Part shown: positions 37,665-47,862 of the stretch, one piece after another | How positions within the stretch are numbered: position 1 is the stretch's first letter | Layout: every line of letters starts with the position of its first letter | From: Helicostylum pulchrum | Lineage: Eukaryota; Mucoromycota; Mucoromycetes; Mucorales; Mucoraceae | Direction: 5' to 3' | DNA length: 64,000 nucleotides | Assembly (NCBI GenBank): GCA_025677825.1 | Contig: JAIXMO010000035.1 | Span: forward strand, 124,001 to 188,000 | Program-made: the position numbers and the translations under genes | The notes under the pieces: generated by a model | Database searches by the model: none | Told to the model about the DNA's origin: nothing | What the model saw: the letters and a program-made list of their open reading frames with translations, nothing else

Positions 37665-39181
37665 ACGGAAAAAAAAAAGAGAGAGAGAGAATATACACCC
37701 CACTTTTTTTCTTCTTTTTTTTTTACTTTTTTATAATAATAATACTAAATAATAATAATATATCAAATCCTTTTTTATTCTTCACTACTTTTTTTGTAAA
37801 TAATAATAAAAAAACGCACACATTCATTTATTTTTAGCATCAATTTGTGATACATGGGACAACAGGGAAAAACTTTCATAATCGTTCTACTATTTTTTTT
37901 CACGAAATAGTACCAACTGTTAATTGTGCAACAAACTGTTGATTGCTTATTTACAGCACATGAACCATTGAATTATTCCCATAGCTAATTCTATTAATAC
38001 ACTTTTTTTAATTCATTTTTCTTCTAATCACCATTAATAGACGATGTGCTGTGGAGGCGCGTAGCTTGCACTGACGGTAAAAGGGATCTGTATATTTCCT
38101 ATGAAAGAGACTTTTTTAAAGCAAAAATCTTAACTCTAGAATGGCTGACGTTTGTAACAATATATATTTCAGTAAATATATATAATTATCTCGTCAACTG
38201 TTCAATTTAAGAATGGACTTTCGCGAATTCCAGACACCATTAAATCAAGCGGCTACTATATTGTGTATATGCCCCGAAAGTTGGGATTTAAGACAGAGGT
38301 TGAAACCCTCATAAAAAAAAGCCAGTTTAAAAAAGCACTGGTGGCTTTCATCAGGTGGTTAAGAAACGATTTGGTATACTTCGAAATATGCTATTATTTT
38401 AAAATGTCATGCATTACGTCTTTCAAGCATAACCCCCAAAGTATGTCTTTTAGTAATTAGTCCCCAAAAAAAAGGCTACAAATTAGCGCTGGAAATCAAA
38501 GCGATATATTTCTATATCTGTAATTGGTATTGTTTTGTCAGAGTGATATAGACTAGTTCGTATAGTTGAAGAGGAATTTTTTCATGCAATGTCAGAATAA
38601 AAATGCTTTAATCCAAATAAAAAAGATAAATAATAAAAAATGCTCAGCTTTACCAGTGGAATGATTTGGATACAAACTGTACAATCACCATTTAGCATCA
38701 GAAAATGCTTTGGAGGTTATGTAAGTATTATTGCACGAAGAGTTGGTCAGGGTTTTTGGAATTAGTATCACTTTTACTGGGGTTTCCTAAACTGGACACT
38801 CTTTTTAAATTAATCGCGCTCTCAACCAATTTTTTTGGTTCAGTGCTGATAAAAGTATATATTTCCAACGGCACTTTTTAGAAAGAAGTTTACGTATCAT
38901 ATTTGCATAACCAGTTTAGACCTCTTCGTTATTGTCTTATTGTATTGTAACGCTTTACTATCTTTGGGTTAAAGCGCAAGAACTATACAGGGTACTCGTA
39001 AAAAAAAATGTGTCGGAAAACTTTTTTTTTTGTATGGTACCCGGAAGTAGCCTAAATATCACTGGGAAATAGGTGAATTATACCCAACTCCGATGACTGC
39101 TCGGACATGGAGGTATTAGTTTAATAAGAAAATGTTGGAAAAAAAAAATCTCTTTGTTCATTCCAATTTCTATAACTCAAA
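37665..39181. other. Long intergenic region 5' of EF2
   Basis: About 1.5 kb. A plus-strand open frame near 38210-38460 (TIKSSGYYIVYMPRKLGFKT...) may be a fragment but has no support. Near 39081-39135 a block (TACCCAACT...GAGGTATTAGTTTAATAAGA) resembles 48586-48635, suggesting a small dispersed repeat near the EF2 promoter. Otherwise nothing seen. Confidence 0.45.
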
Positions 39182-41947
39182 ATGGGTACGTATTGACGCC
39201 TTAAGACGATACCATCCATCAAGAACTAAGCATCTAATCGATGGATGTATTATCATTTAAAAAATCATTCAAAAACTAACACTTTTTTTTTATTTTTTTT
39301 ATTTTTTTTTTACTATTTTTTTTTTCTATGACCATTTAGTTGTAAGTATTTGGAATAATTGACAAAACTTAAACATGTATAAAAAAAACATAGACTAATT
39401 CAATATATTTATGTACAGAATTTCACAATTGAAGAAATCCGTACTTTGATGGACAAGGTTACCAATGTGCGTAACATGTCTGTTATTGCTCACGTCGATC
39501 ACGGTAAGTCTACCTTAACCGATTCCCTTGTCTCCAAGGCCGGTATTATCTCTTCCGGTCGTGCTGGTGAGGCCCGTTTCATGGATACCCGTAAGGATGA
39601 ACAAGAACGTGGTATTACTATCAAGTCTACTGCCATTTCTCTTTATTTCCAAATGAGCGACCCCACTGATATTCAAGAAATTAAGAACCAAAAGACCAAC
39701 GGTTCCGCTTTCTTGATTAACTTGATCGATTCCCCTGGTCACGTCGATTTCTCTTCTGAAGTTACCGCTGCCCTTCGTGTTACCGATGGTGCCCTTGTCG
39801 TTGTTGATTGTATTGATGGTGTCTGTGTCCAAACCGAGACTGTCTTGCGTCAAGCTTTGAATGAACGTATTAAGCCCGTTATTTGTCTTAACAAGATGGA
39901 TCGTGCTCTTCTCGAACTCCAATTGGATAAGGAAGAACTTTACAACTCTTTCTCTCGTACTATTGAATCCGTTAACGTCATCATCTCCACCTATGTTGAT
40001 GAAGCTCTCGGTGATGTTCAAGTTTACCCCGAAAAGGGTACCGTTGCTTTTGCTTCCGGTCTTCACGGTTGGGGTTTCACTCTTCGTCAATTCGCTATCC
40101 GTTATGCCAAGAAGTTTGGTGTTGATAGAGAGAAGATGATGGGTAAGCTTTGGGGTGAAAACTACTTCAACCCTAAGACCAAGAAGTGGACCACCAAGTC
40201 TACTGATGCTGAGGGTAAGCAACTCGAACGTGCTTTCAACATGTTCATTTTAGATCCTATCTACCGTGTCTTTGATTCTATCATGAACTTCAAGAAGGAT
40301 CAAACCAAGGTTCTCCTCGAAAAGTTGGAAGTTAACCTTGCTGCTGAAGAGAAAGATTTGGAAGGTAAGGCCCTCCTCAAGGTCGTTATGCGTAAGTTCT
40401 TGCCCGCTGGTGATGCTCTTTTAGAGATGATCTGTATCCATCTTCCCTCTCCCGTTACCTCTCAAGCTTACCGTTGTGGTCAATTGTACGAAGGTCCCGC
40501 TGATGATGAGTGTGCTCGTGGTATTACTGCTTGTGATCCTAACGGTCCTCTTATGTTGTACGTCTCCAAGATGGTTCCCACCTCCGATAAGGGTCGTTTC
40601 TACGCTTTCGGTCGTGTCTTCTCCGGTACCGTTCGTGCTGGTATGAAGGTCAGAATCCAAGGTCCTAACTATGTTCCCGGTTCCAAGACTGATCTTGCTG
40701 TCAAGTCTATCCAACGTACTGTTCTCATGATGGGACGTAATGTTGAAGCCATTGAGGATTGTCCCGCTGGTAACATTATTGGTCTTGTCGGTGTTGATCA
40801 ATTCTTGGTCAAGTCTGGTACCATTACCACCTCTGAAGTTGCTCACAACATGAAGGTCATGAAGTTCTCTGTCTCCCCTGTTGTCCAAGTTGCTGTTGAT
40901 GTTAAGAACGCTAACGATCTCCCTAAGCTCGTTGAAGGTCTTAAGCGTCTCGCTAAGTCCGATCCTTGTGTCTTGTGTTTCACTTCCGACTCTGGTGAAC
41001 ATATTGTTGCCGGTGCTGGTGAACTCCATCTCGAAATTTGTTTGAAGGATTTGGAAGAGGATCACGCTCAAGTTCCTCTTAAGACTGGTGACCCCGTTGT
41101 CCAATACCGTGAAACCGTCACTGCCGAATCTACCATTGACTGTCTTTCCAAGTCTCCTAACAAGCATAACCGTATCTACATGCGTGCTCTTCCTCTCGCT
41201 GATGAACTCGCTGATGAGATTGATGCTGGTAAGATCTCTGCCAAGGATGATTTCAAGCTCCGTGCTCGTGTCTTAGCTGATAAGTACGAATGGGATGTTA
41301 CTGAAGCTCGTAAGATCTGGTGTTTCGGTCCTGACGGTACTGGTCCTAACGTCCTTGTTGATGTTACCAAGCAAGTCCAATACCTCGGTGAAATCAAGGA
41401 TTCTTGTGTTGCTGCTTTCCAATGGGCTACCAAGGAAGGTCCCGTTGCTGAAGAAAACGTCCGTTCCGTTCGTTTCAACATCCTCGATGTCACTCTTCAT
41501 GCTGATGCTATCCATCGTGGTGGTGGACAAATTATCCCCACTTGTCGTCGTGTCATGTACGCTTCTATTCTTACCGCTACCCCCGGTATCCAAGAACCCG
41601 TCTACCTCGTCGAAATCCAATGTCCCGATTCCGCTATCGGTGGTATCTACTCTTGTCTTAACAGACGTCGTGGTCAAGTCTTCTCTGAAGAACAAAAACC
41701 CGGTACCCCCATGGTTGCTGTCAAGGCCTACTTGCCCGTTAACGAATCTTTCGGTTTCACTGCTGATCTTCGTGCCGCTACTGGTGGTCAAGCTTTCCCT
41801 CAAGCTGTCTTCGATCATTGGCAAATCATGCCCGGAAACCCTACCGAACCCGGAAACAAGGTTTACGACATCATTCGTGTCGTCCGTAAGAGAAAGGGTC
41901 TCGTTGAAGATATTCCCGGTCTCGATAAGTACTACGATAAGCTTTAA
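39182..41947 (+). CDS. EFT1: Translation elongation factor 2
   Basis: About 844 residues (yeast 842). The N-terminus [20 protein letters not shown] is assembled from ATGG (39182-39185), a two-base exon TT (39340-39341) and the main exon from 39419. The main exon has the GTPase motifs [26 protein letters not shown] and NKMD, and the diphthamide-loop histidine region [15 protein letters not shown]. It ends LDKYYDKL. Drives ribosomal translocation; ADP-ribosylation target at diphthamide. Codon use is strongly biased (many GGT, GCT, AAG, CGT, TTC/ATC), and GC content is well above neighbouring genes, as expected of a very highly expressed gene; this also creates long antisense open frames that are not genes. 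Confidence 0.97.
39340..39341 (+). other. Two-nucleotide microexon (or recursive splice site) of EF2
   Basis: The sequence ACCATTTAG-TT-GTAAGTAT has a consensus acceptor directly followed by two bases and a consensus donor. Only with these two bases does ATGG join to AATTTCACAATT to give ATG GTT AAT TTC (MVNF), the EF2 N-terminus. Without it the frame is lost. Confidence 0.8.
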
Positions 41948-45045: not shown

Positions 45046-47862
45046 ATGTTTCGTATTTTAAGTAAAACTTTTACTACCAGGAACTTGACATGGCCAAGAA
45101 CATTCATTACCACTACACCTCTAAATAAACGAGTATCTAAAATAAACCTAAGTGAACTAGTATTAGAAACTGAAACCAGTAAACCAGTTACTCCTCTCGT
45201 AAGAAAAGAGATCTCGACTGGTTCTATTGTATTAGATACTGTGCGCGAATATACAAAAAAGTATCCATTATGTGTACTTTTAGTTCAAGTAGGTGACTTT
45301 TATGAGGTAAGAAGAAAACGTGCATACATTTAAAAAAGAAAATTTTCCCTGATTTTTTTTTGTAGCTGTATGAATCGCATGCAAGTAGATATGCGCCGCA
45401 ACTTGATTTAAAGTTAACCAAGAAATCTATTACTGTAGACACAATAGTCGACTTTGCAGGATTTCCTTTAAGAGCATTAGATAGGTATCTCGATATACTT
45501 GTCAATAGACTTCGTTGTAAAGTAGCTATTTGTGAACAATTTGGTTCTGTATCAAGACAAGATAAATCAGCTCTAGGAATACAACGTAAAATTACTAGAA
45601 TTATTACTCCTGGTACAGTGATAGAAGAGCGCTTTTTGGAGTCTAATCAATATAACTACCTATTATCTGTTTTTCCCAATAAGGATTCTACCATTGGCCT
45701 AGCATGGGTTGATGTTTCTGTAGGGGAATTTGTTATGCAACAAACAACCTTGGATGCATTAAAAGATGATATTGCAAGAATTAGGCCAAGAGAAGTTATT
45801 TTACCTGAATCGATGAAGCCTTCTGATGATCTATTACAACAAGGACTGTTTGATCAAGAAGTATATGACCCTGTCACAAGACTATTGATAGCTGATCCAA
45901 ATATTGCTATCAGTTATGTCGATGATAACCAGTATAATGCTGGTACTGCTGTAAGGACATTACAGAACATGTTTAAGAGTAATGCCCTCGAATTTAGTCA
46001 AATTGAATTAGCTGCAGGAATGGCCTTAATGATGTACGTTAATGAAACACATATCAATAGAAAACCAAAATGGCAAAATCCATCCCGGTTTAGTATGCAT
46101 GATTCAGTCTGTATTGACAGCGCTGCCATGGCGTCACTAGAAATTGTTAAAAGTTTACAAGGTAGAAGAACAGACAGTCTAATAGGCGTATTAGATTGTA
46201 CATCCACAAGTGCTGGCTCAAGATTACTTACACGCTGGATATCTTCTCCATTAACTTGTATTGATAGCATTAGAAATAGGTTAGATATTGTGGAGTATTT
46301 TAAAGACAACACATTCTTGCTGGATGATTTACGAAACCTATTACGTCAAAGCACTGATGCTCAAAGGTCGATACAAAGACTTGCCTTAAAAAGAGGACAA
46401 CATTCCGATTTAATGGAAGTTTGGTATACGTTAGACATCATGAAAAATATTCATGAAAAATTACAACAAACTACTTCTGAACCCACACAAGATCTTGTGA
46501 CATCAATGGATCCACATGAATCATTAGCCCATTATATTCGCGATGCATTCGATCATGAACGAATTCAGGCCAAGGAGATCAAGGATTATGGCTTTGTAAA
46601 TCATGCATTCCATCCTGATTTATTGCAGCTTCATAATCAACTAGATGAATTGGATACTCAACGATTAAACCTTCAAAATGAACTTCGTTTGCTTTGTGGT
46701 AACTCCTTATCACTTATGGCTGATGGTCCGCTTAAGCACATTATTGAAATTAGCTCTAGAAAAGCACCAAATCTTGTAGAAAAGTTTCCTCATGCTATAC
46801 TTTTAAACAGTACAAAGAGTAAAAAAAGGTACCAAGTAAAAGAATGGACTGATATATCTGTTCAACTTGGTTCTATTGAATCACAAATCATTGATATTGA
46901 GAGTCAAGTATTTGACCAGGTTGTAGATAAAGTATTGGATCAAAGTGCAACGATTTTACAAAGCTGCAGAAAATTAGCAGAATTAGATGTACTTACATCT
47001 TTTTCACACCTTGCTCGTCAAAATCGATATGTTCGACCTCGTATGACCCATGCTAATAGAACAATGATTTTAGGTGGAAGACATCCTGTAGTGGAAGCTA
47101 ATTTATCAAGAAAGGGACAGACTTTTGTACGCAATGATTGTGATCTCGGTGCTGATCAGCGAATTTGGCTTTTAACTGGCCCTAACATGGGAGGAAAAAG
47201 CACCTTTTTGCGCCAGCATGTGATTATAGTGTTAATGGCACATATGGGATGCTTCGTACCTGCCGACCGTGCTTGGATTGGGATTACAGATAGAATTTTC
47301 AGTCGTGTTGGTGCAGCTGATAACTTGGCACAGAATCAATCTACTTTTATGGTTGAAATGTCCGAGGTTTCTACCATTCTTAAACAAGCCACAGCTAGAT
47401 CAACTGTCATTATGGATGAGGTGGGAAGGGGTACATCAACTACAGATGGCTTCTCATTAGCTTTTGGTATATTGGATTTCTTACACAACCAAATCAAATG
47501 CCGTACTATCTATGCAACTCATTATCATGAACTGGCCGATACAATGACTGGATATGACAAAATAAAGTGCTATAAGACTAGTATCGAAGAAAACTCTTTG
47601 GGGGGTTTCCGTTTTGTACATAAAGTAGAACCGGGTATTTGCCGACAATCTCATGGATTAAAAGTGGCCCAATTAGCAGGTACGTAACTTACATATGGCA
47701 GGATAATGGTTATATTTATATATTATATACTTTTTTTTAGGTTTGCCAACTCAGGTGATTAAAAAGGCTGAATCTATGTGGAATATTTTACAAAATAGTC
47801 AAGTACCTATCGTACCTCATCTTACAGAACCAAATTATGATGAACAAAAGAGTATTGTATAA
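45046..47862 (+). CDS. MSH1: Mitochondrial MutS homologue Msh1
   Basis: Three exons (about 45046-45306, 45366-47680, 47741-47862), about 900 residues. A basic, Ser/Thr-rich, acid-free presequence (MFRILSKTFTTRNLTWPRTF) predicts mitochondrial import. MutS domain I carries LVQVGDFYELYESHASRYAP, matching the mismatch-contacting F-Y-E motif. The ATPase has Walker A GPNMGGKSTFLRQ, Walker B STVIMDEVGRGTSTTDG, and YATHYHEL. The C-terminus is GLPTQVIKKAESMW. A motif I F-Y-E plus presequence distinguishes Msh1 from nuclear MSH2-6. Role: mtDNA stability and mismatch repair. Confidence 0.95.

What the first reader, a model, noticed from the sequence alone, without database searches (positions are those of the whole stretch)
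39182..39430. EF2 start codon is separated from the body by a 2-nt microexon or recursive splice site
EF2 is almost invariant at its N-terminus (MVNFT-type). Here ATGG|GTACGT, then TTTAG|TT|GTAAGT, then TACAG|AATTTCACAATT are the only consensus sites that yield ATG GTT AAT TTC. A 2-nt exon is below the size normally recognised by exon definition. It implies either stepwise (recursive) removal, where the acceptor is immediately followed by a regenerated donor, or very strong intron definition. It is striking in a gene that must be among the most highly expressed in the cell.
Basis: partly seen in the sequence, partly recalled or inferred. Interest (0 to 1): 0.85.

Follow-up and report, generated by a model that had tools for sequence, protein, structure and literature searches.

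The report
Two-nucleotide exon in fungal EF2 gene
In a Mucorales mould, the gene for the essential protein-making factor EF2 appears to be read through an exon only two letters long just after its start codon, and the same two-letter exon survives in a second, otherwise diverged copy of the gene.

Summary
Confirmed at DNA level. ATGG (39182-39185), TT (39340-39341) and the 842-codon EF2 body (from 39419) are separated by 154-nt and 77-nt GT-AG introns; joined they read MVNFTIEE. After ATGG, TT is the only in-frame AG|n|GT exon of up to 14 nt in either gene copy, and no single intron among those enumerated gives MVNFT. Main support: an EF2 paralog on contig C93 with diverged flanks and introns still has ATGG|GT...CATTTAG|TT|GTAAGTATT...TTTAG|AATTTC. 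That 18-mer is the longest string the two intron regions share and has two exact matches in 32.2 Mb, these two. Skipping TT gives a stop after five codons in both copies. One gene places the genome at or near Helicostylum pulchrum. I read it as a constitutive 2-nt microexon, not a zero-nt recursive site or stwintron; stepwise intron removal is inferred. One-nt exons are published in plants and Fusarium; this would add a 2-nt case in an essential translation gene and may help explain why 24 of 36 listed Mucoromycotina EF2 records start differently. RNA evidence is missing.

The parts
39182..39185 (+). first coding exon ATGG (start codon plus first letter of the Val codon)
   Evidence: AAAATGGGTA is also shared with the C93 paralog
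39186..39339 (+). intron 1, 154 nt, GTACGT...CATTTAG
   Evidence: paralog counterpart is 152 nt
39206..39256 (+). predicted hairpin in intron 1 (stem core CATCCA/TGGATG) that also folds in the paralog
   Evidence: -12.6 and -14.6 kcal/mol, 1 of 300 mononucleotide shuffles as stable in each; whole region not significant
39276..39280 (+). candidate branch point CTAAC of intron 1, about 60 nt before its end
   Evidence: paralog has CTAAC about 50 nt before the end
39333..39350 (+). 18-nt block CATTTAGTTGTAAGTATT, identical in both EF2 copies: 3' site, TT exon, donor
   Evidence: two exact matches in 32.2 Mb
39340..39341 (+). 2-nt microexon TT (letters 2 and 3 of the Val-2 codon)
   Evidence: the only in-frame microexon of up to 14 nt after ATGG in each copy
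39342..39418 (+). intron 2, 77 nt, GTAAGT...TACAG
   Evidence: paralog counterpart is 138 nt
39395..39399 (+). candidate branch point CTAAT of intron 2, about 20 nt before its end
   Evidence: paralog has CTAAT at about 24 nt
39419..41947 (+). EF2 body, 842 codons plus TAA, no further intron in this copy

Best explanation
The EF2 gene starts with three coding pieces: ATGG, a constitutive 2-nt internal exon TT, and the 842-codon body, separated by two ordinary GT-AG introns of 154 and 77 nt. Shown by sequence: the sites, the frame, the uniqueness of the solution within the structures enumerated, and the same structure in a paralog whose introns and flanks have otherwise diverged. Inferred: both introns are removed by intron definition, one after the other, because the AG of intron 1 lies 2 nt from the GT of intron 2 and both cannot easily be occupied at once. 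I lean slightly (about 55:45) to intron 2 first, as it has the best donor and a branch point at normal distance. Intron 1 would then join ATGG to TTAATTTC. Also inferred: skipping TT gives MEFHN-stop, so correct inclusion is needed for EF2 to be made from this transcript.
For: Body is EF2, 93% identical to the best listed hit. Both copies have one and the same in-frame microexon, and the joined reading gives MVNFTIEE, the form of 12 of 36 Mucoromycotina and 62 of 84 other listed EF2s (MVNF[ST]). No single GT- or GC-donor intron of 40-500 nt ending at the body, from an ATG within 1.5 kb, gives MV|NFT: 11 such structures in the window copy (one ends in Val, as MCRKTFFFVWYPEV with a GC donor) and 8 in C93 (none ends in Val). 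The paralog bodies differ at 13 of 2,529 sites, all synonymous, while the first 60 nt after the stop match at 23 of 60 (ungapped) and the 5' stretch at 165 of 248 aligned sites, conserved ends included; within that stretch CATTTAGTTGTAAGTATT is intact. It has no other exact match in the genome. Each intron has its own CTAAY branch-point candidate. GTT|GTAAGT after an open frame is also seen at two other loci that look like ordinary donors.
Against: No RNA data. With the three exon letters included, the EF2 donors score at least as high as only 3 of 16 reference donors, and the window acceptors 3 of 16 each (C93: 8 and 1). The reference set is small, 14 of its 16 introns were chosen by a score that rewards GTAAGT and CTRAY, and some may be misplaced, so the rank of GTAAGT (16 of 16) is partly circular. 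Intron 1, at 154 and 152 nt, is longer than all 16 references (59-113 nt), and its CTAAC lies farther from the end (61 and 51) than in the 9 of 14 references that have such a motif (16-42). Only one genome could be examined at DNA level.
Confidence: 0.92

Rival explanations
1. The pair of introns is a [D1,2] stwintron: intron 39186-39339 is removed first and the external donor is G|TTGTAA, so exon 1 is ATG and the protein starts MNFT without Val.
For: It keeps the frame; two listed Mucorales EF2s are annotated MNFT (P0010 Radiomyces, P0024 Chlamydoabsidia).
Against: GTTGTA scores below all 16 reference donors on +1..+6 (on -3..+6 it reaches 1 of 16), whereas GTAAGT three bases on scores at least as high as all 16; the set leans towards GTAAGT by selection. 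It loses Val-2, found in 74 of 120 listed EF2s. The MNFT annotations may themselves be mispredictions.
Confidence: 0.03
2. Translation starts elsewhere: a single intron from another upstream ATG (for example ATG 39034|GTACCC, giving MNFT) or the in-frame Met at 39449, and the TT site is a coincidence.
For: Such structures exist on paper (8 GT-donor ones in the window copy), and 16 of 36 Mucoromycotina records are annotated from an internal Met.
Against: None of the GT-donor single-intron products is the same in the two copies, and none gives MVNFT. A chance site would not be expected to survive intact in a diverged paralog.
Confidence: 0.03
3. The microexon is regulated: inclusion versus skipping (MEFHN-stop) sets EF2 output through nonsense-mediated decay. 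This is an addition to the best explanation rather than an alternative gene structure.
For: Each of the four mis-spliced or unspliced forms translated meets a stop in both copies, after 4-8 residues in the window copy and after 5, 22, 22 and at least 40 in C93.
Against: Any exon near a start codon whose length is not a multiple of 3 does this. No RNA data; no conserved regulatory element beyond the splice block and the hairpin.
Confidence: 0.1

Closest known systems
Single-nucleotide exon of Arabidopsis APC11 (PMC4674806; abstract with introduction, and discussion read)
   Same: Constitutive ultra-small internal exon between two introns, needed for the frame; the authors consider intron definition combined with stepwise removal.
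   Different: 1 nt, plant gene, tested by APC11-GFP constructs in Arabidopsis and rice; here 2 nt, a Mucorales EF2 gene, DNA evidence only.
Single-nucleotide exon of Fusarium CYP621A (PMC12940212; abstract, introduction and discussion read)
   Same: Fungal, found because a conserved motif could not be assembled otherwise; orthologs share it; the same style of argument as here.
   Different: 1 nt, P450 gene, SRA reads confirm it; here 2 nt, at the start codon of an essential translation factor. That paper states that 2-5 bp exons are known in Arabidopsis, Drosophila and humans.
Plant VPS55 and APC11 1-nt microexons (PMC8831610; 12 of 19 passages found were seen)
   Same: Missing from annotations, which leads to shorter or different N-termini; VPS55 has a conserved GTRAGT donor.
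   Different: 1 nt; survey based on RNA-seq in plants.
Stwintrons of filamentous fungi (PMC9024468 and others; search listing and abstract starts only)
   Same: Two introns that must be removed one after the other.
   Different: In a stwintron an internal intron splits a splice motif of the external one; here both introns are complete and two letters between them are kept.

Membership tests
constitutive ultra-small (1-5 nt) microexon | complete 3' and 5' splice sites flanking 1-5 letters that are needed in the protein | tested here: met
   AG|TT|GTAAGT, Val-2 of MVNFT; only solution found in both copies
constitutive ultra-small (1-5 nt) microexon | retained among homologous genes | tested here: met
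   same exon in the diverged C93 paralog; other species could not be read at DNA level (searches found no EF2 DNA)
constitutive ultra-small (1-5 nt) microexon | present in mature mRNA | not testable with these tools
   no transcript data
stwintron | internal intron interrupts a splice motif of the external intron, with no exon between | tested here: not met
   donor GTAAGT and acceptor CATTTAG are both intact; the [D1,2] parse I considered needs donor GTTGTA, which scores below 16 of 16 references on +1..+6
recursive splicing at a zero-nucleotide ratchet point | AG immediately followed by GT, donor rebuilt after the first step | tested here: not met
   AG and GT are separated by TT, which is needed for frame and for Val-2
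recursive splicing at a zero-nucleotide ratchet point | ordered removal with intermediates | not testable with these tools
   needs RNA intermediates or lariats

The most novel reading that the evidence does not exclude
The 2-nt exon is an old, conserved feature of EF2 across Mucorales. It forces two mutually exclusive splicing events in sequence in one of the cell's most used genes, acts as an obligatory gate on EF2 synthesis, and underlies a clade-wide misannotation of the EF2 N-terminus.
Probability: 0.4. Interest if true: 0.65.

Novelty: new member of a known kind. Interest (0 to 1): 0.5.

Why it matters
Sub-3-nt exons test how little exon the spliceosome needs. The published 1-nt cases that I read about lie in genes I would expect to be far less expressed (my inference), whereas EF2 is normally among the most expressed genes (general knowledge), so the reaction would have to be efficient, and two natural copies with different flanking introns (154+77 and 152+138 nt) make it directly testable. 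It may also explain wrong EF2 N-termini in public records and warns that gene models of EF2 in this group can lack the true start.

Tried and rejected
De novo intron finding from codon bias in the window gave no candidates, then nine unreliable ones, so it was dropped. Reference introns were instead read between exon hits of PF00118, PF00004, an EF2-like gene and the C93 EF2 body: 17 junctions, one best candidate each (the first attempt, misread the minus-strand loci), of which 3 low-scoring ones were dropped. Two MSH1 introns were added for (16 in all). The score that chose the 17 rewards likeness to GTAAGT and a CTRAY motif, so ranks based on this set lean that way.

Searches for EF2 DNA of relatives in viral contigs and prokaryote genomes found none; metagenome scans had a cap of zero and were not tried. 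Rfam gave no match in the window at gathering thresholds. The whole 5' region is not unusually structured (z 0.09). A mobile intron was considered: all 12 non-self matches of the 319-nt 5' region lie within query 157-228, which is the T-rich stretch (the C93 paralog was not among them, which fits diverged introns), and the 18-mer is exact only at the two EF2 loci (up to 2 mismatches there were 14 places, against 5 for the reversed control pattern). Another such microexon was considered at 3 of the 12 near matches, those that keep AGTTGTAAGT: two look like ordinary donors (48 and 24 open codons upstream), the third is undecided (22 open codons). The other 9 were not looked at.

Literature searches. 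No title or abstract start listed there names a 2-nt exon in EF2 or in Mucorales (one search listed 8 of 21 papers); '2-nt exon' and 'two-nucleotide exon' gave no papers. Most subscription papers are not in that library, so this is weak evidence of absence from print.

Full report
WHAT IS THERE. The 842-codon frame starting AAT TTC ACA at 39419 is EF2: it is 93% identical to the best listed record, from Benjaminiella poitrasii, and the named hits nearest to it are mostly Mucorales. It lacks a start: the codon before AAT is CAG and the frame upstream to the previous stop has no ATG. The first in-frame Met is at 39449. The usual start is MVNF[ST], seen in 74 of the 120 listed relatives. In the window that start can be assembled as ATGG (39182-39185), TT (39340-39341), body (39419-41947), with introns of 154 and 77 nt bearing GTACGT...CATTTAG and GTAAGT...TACAG.

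IS IT UNIQUE? I enumerated in-frame AG|n|GT exons of up to 14 nt after ATGG and before the body, with no stop and both introns of 40 nt or more: one, TT. Single-intron structures ending at the body, from any ATG within 1.5 kb, with introns of 40-500 nt: 8 with GT and 3 with GC donors. One of the GC ones ends in Val, but as MCRKTFFFVWYPEV; none gives MV before NFT. ATGGT occurs once in that 1.5 kb, at 39034, followed by ACCCG, so no GT or GC donor stands directly after ATGGTN. Structures with longer middle exons or longer introns were not enumerated.

THE PARALOG. The same genome has a second EF2 gene on contig C93, minus strand, body 321017 to 318430 with one extra 62-nt intron after codon 176 of the body. 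The bodies differ at 13 of 2,529 sites, all synonymous third positions, but the first 60 nt after the stop match at 23 of 60 (ungapped) and the introns have different sequence. Upstream of the body it reads ATGG|GTAAAA...CATTTAG|TT|GTAAGTATT...TTTAG|AATTTC, with introns of 152 and 138 nt. Again TT is the only in-frame microexon found, and none of 5 GT plus 3 GC single-intron structures ends in Val. CATTTAGTTGTAAGTATT is the longest string shared by the two intron regions; the next longest are T-rich 11-mers and one 10-mer. In 2,000 shuffled pairs the longest shared string not dominated by one letter reached 16 at most. In 32.2 Mb there are 2 exact matches, these two; 12 more places have 2 mismatches, and the reversed control pattern has 5 places in all. 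Because the body seems to have been homogenised while the 5' introns were not, retention of this block is informative. A DNA search with the window's 5' region did not list the C93 copy at all, in keeping with diverged introns.

CHANCE. An AG|TN|GT exon by itself is not rare (4.9% and 10.4% of shuffles); with a GTRNGT donor it is (0.035% and 0.125%). The weight of the case therefore rests on the paralog and on the protein frame.

SPLICE SITES. Against 16 reference introns of this genome (leave-one-out), intronic GTAAGT scores at least as high as 16 of 16, GTACGT 9 of 16 and GTAAAA 5 of 16. Including the three exon letters, all reach only 3 of 16. Window acceptors reach 3 of 16 each; the C93 ones 8 and 1. 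The set leans towards GTAAGT, because 14 of the 16 were chosen by a score that rewards it. Intron 1 is longer than all 16 references, and its CTAAC lies 61 (window) and 51 (C93) nt from the end, against 16-42 in the 9 of 14 references with such a motif; intron 2 has CTAAT at 21 and 24. A local hairpin in intron 1 (39206-39256) folds in both copies (-12.6 and -14.6 kcal/mol; 1 of 300 mononucleotide shuffles as stable in each). It lies between donor and branch point and might shorten that distance. No compensatory change was shown, and the whole region is not significant.

HOW IT WORKS. Exon definition across 2 nt is not plausible (also argued for the 1-nt exon in PMC4674806, discussion read). 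The AG of intron 1 and the GT of intron 2 are too close to be bound at once, so the introns should go in sequence (inference). Either order leaves complete sites for the second step. I lean weakly to intron 2 first, from donor strength and branch-point distance. Wrong forms end prematurely: skipping gives MEFHN-stop (window) or MEFHY-stop (C93); retaining intron 1 gives MGTY-stop in the window copy and 22 residues in C93; retaining intron 2 gives MVVSIWNN-stop in the window copy and at least 40 residues before a stop in C93.

OTHER SPECIES. No relative's DNA was available. Indirect sign: of the 120 EF2 rows listed (of 7,994), 36 bear names that I place in Mucoromycotina from general knowledge. 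Of these, 12 start MVNFT, 4 M(x)NFT (two MNFT, one MGNFT, one MANFT; some may be genuine), 3 have foreign residues before NFT, 1 starts bare at NFT, and 16 start at an internal Met. Of the 84 other rows 62 start MVNF[ST], 14 start inside and 8 are otherwise different. The rows are cluster representatives from mixed annotation pipelines, and the 84 include unnamed metagenome proteins, so this is suggestive only. It fits a hard-to-predict intron just before AAT in many Mucorales, not necessarily the 2-nt exon.

WHAT IS KNOWN. One-nt exons: Arabidopsis APC11 (PMC4674806, abstract with introduction, and discussion read), plant VPS55 (PMC8831610, passages seen), Fusarium CYP621A (PMC12940212, abstract, introduction and discussion read). 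The last calls itself the first for a fungal gene and says that 2-5 bp exons are known in Arabidopsis, Drosophila and humans. So the kind is known; as far as my searches go, the gene, the lineage and the start-codon position are the new parts. It is not a stwintron or a zero-nt recursive site by their defining features.

VERDICT. Very probably a real 2-nt microexon (0.92), a new member of a known kind.

Noticed in passing
window 39419-41947 versus G000:C93:318430-321017: EF2 bodies of the two copies differ at 13 of 2,529 sites (all synonymous) while introns and flanks diverged, and C93 alone has a 62-nt intron after codon 176 of the body: looks like gene conversion, perhaps through cDNA with intron loss in the window copy, or an intron gain in C93.
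   Followed up: partly
window 39206-39256: A hairpin in intron 1 with stem core CATCCA/TGGATG folds in both EF2 copies; it may shorten the donor to branch-point distance.
   Followed up: partly
EF2 protein records P0006, P0010, P0015, P0017, P0018, P0021, P0024, P0028 and 16 truncated ones: 24 of 36 listed Mucoromycotina EF2 records do not start MVNFT; P0028 (Umbelopsis) reads ...IVNFT, which would fit ATAG|TTAATTTC read through, that is, a TT joined to the body there.
   Followed up: no
window 45046-47859: MSH1-like MutS gene; protein nearly identical (100%, 99.6% in the long tblastn piece) to Helicostylum pulchrum HPULCUR_004296, which suggests that species or a close relative.
   Followed up: partly
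L062 (C85:6600-9600) and L063 (C114:774300-777300): Open frames apparently ending in ...GTT|GTAAGT in a Bud32-like and an NTF2-like gene (names recalled), the same donor context as after the TT exon.
   Followed up: no
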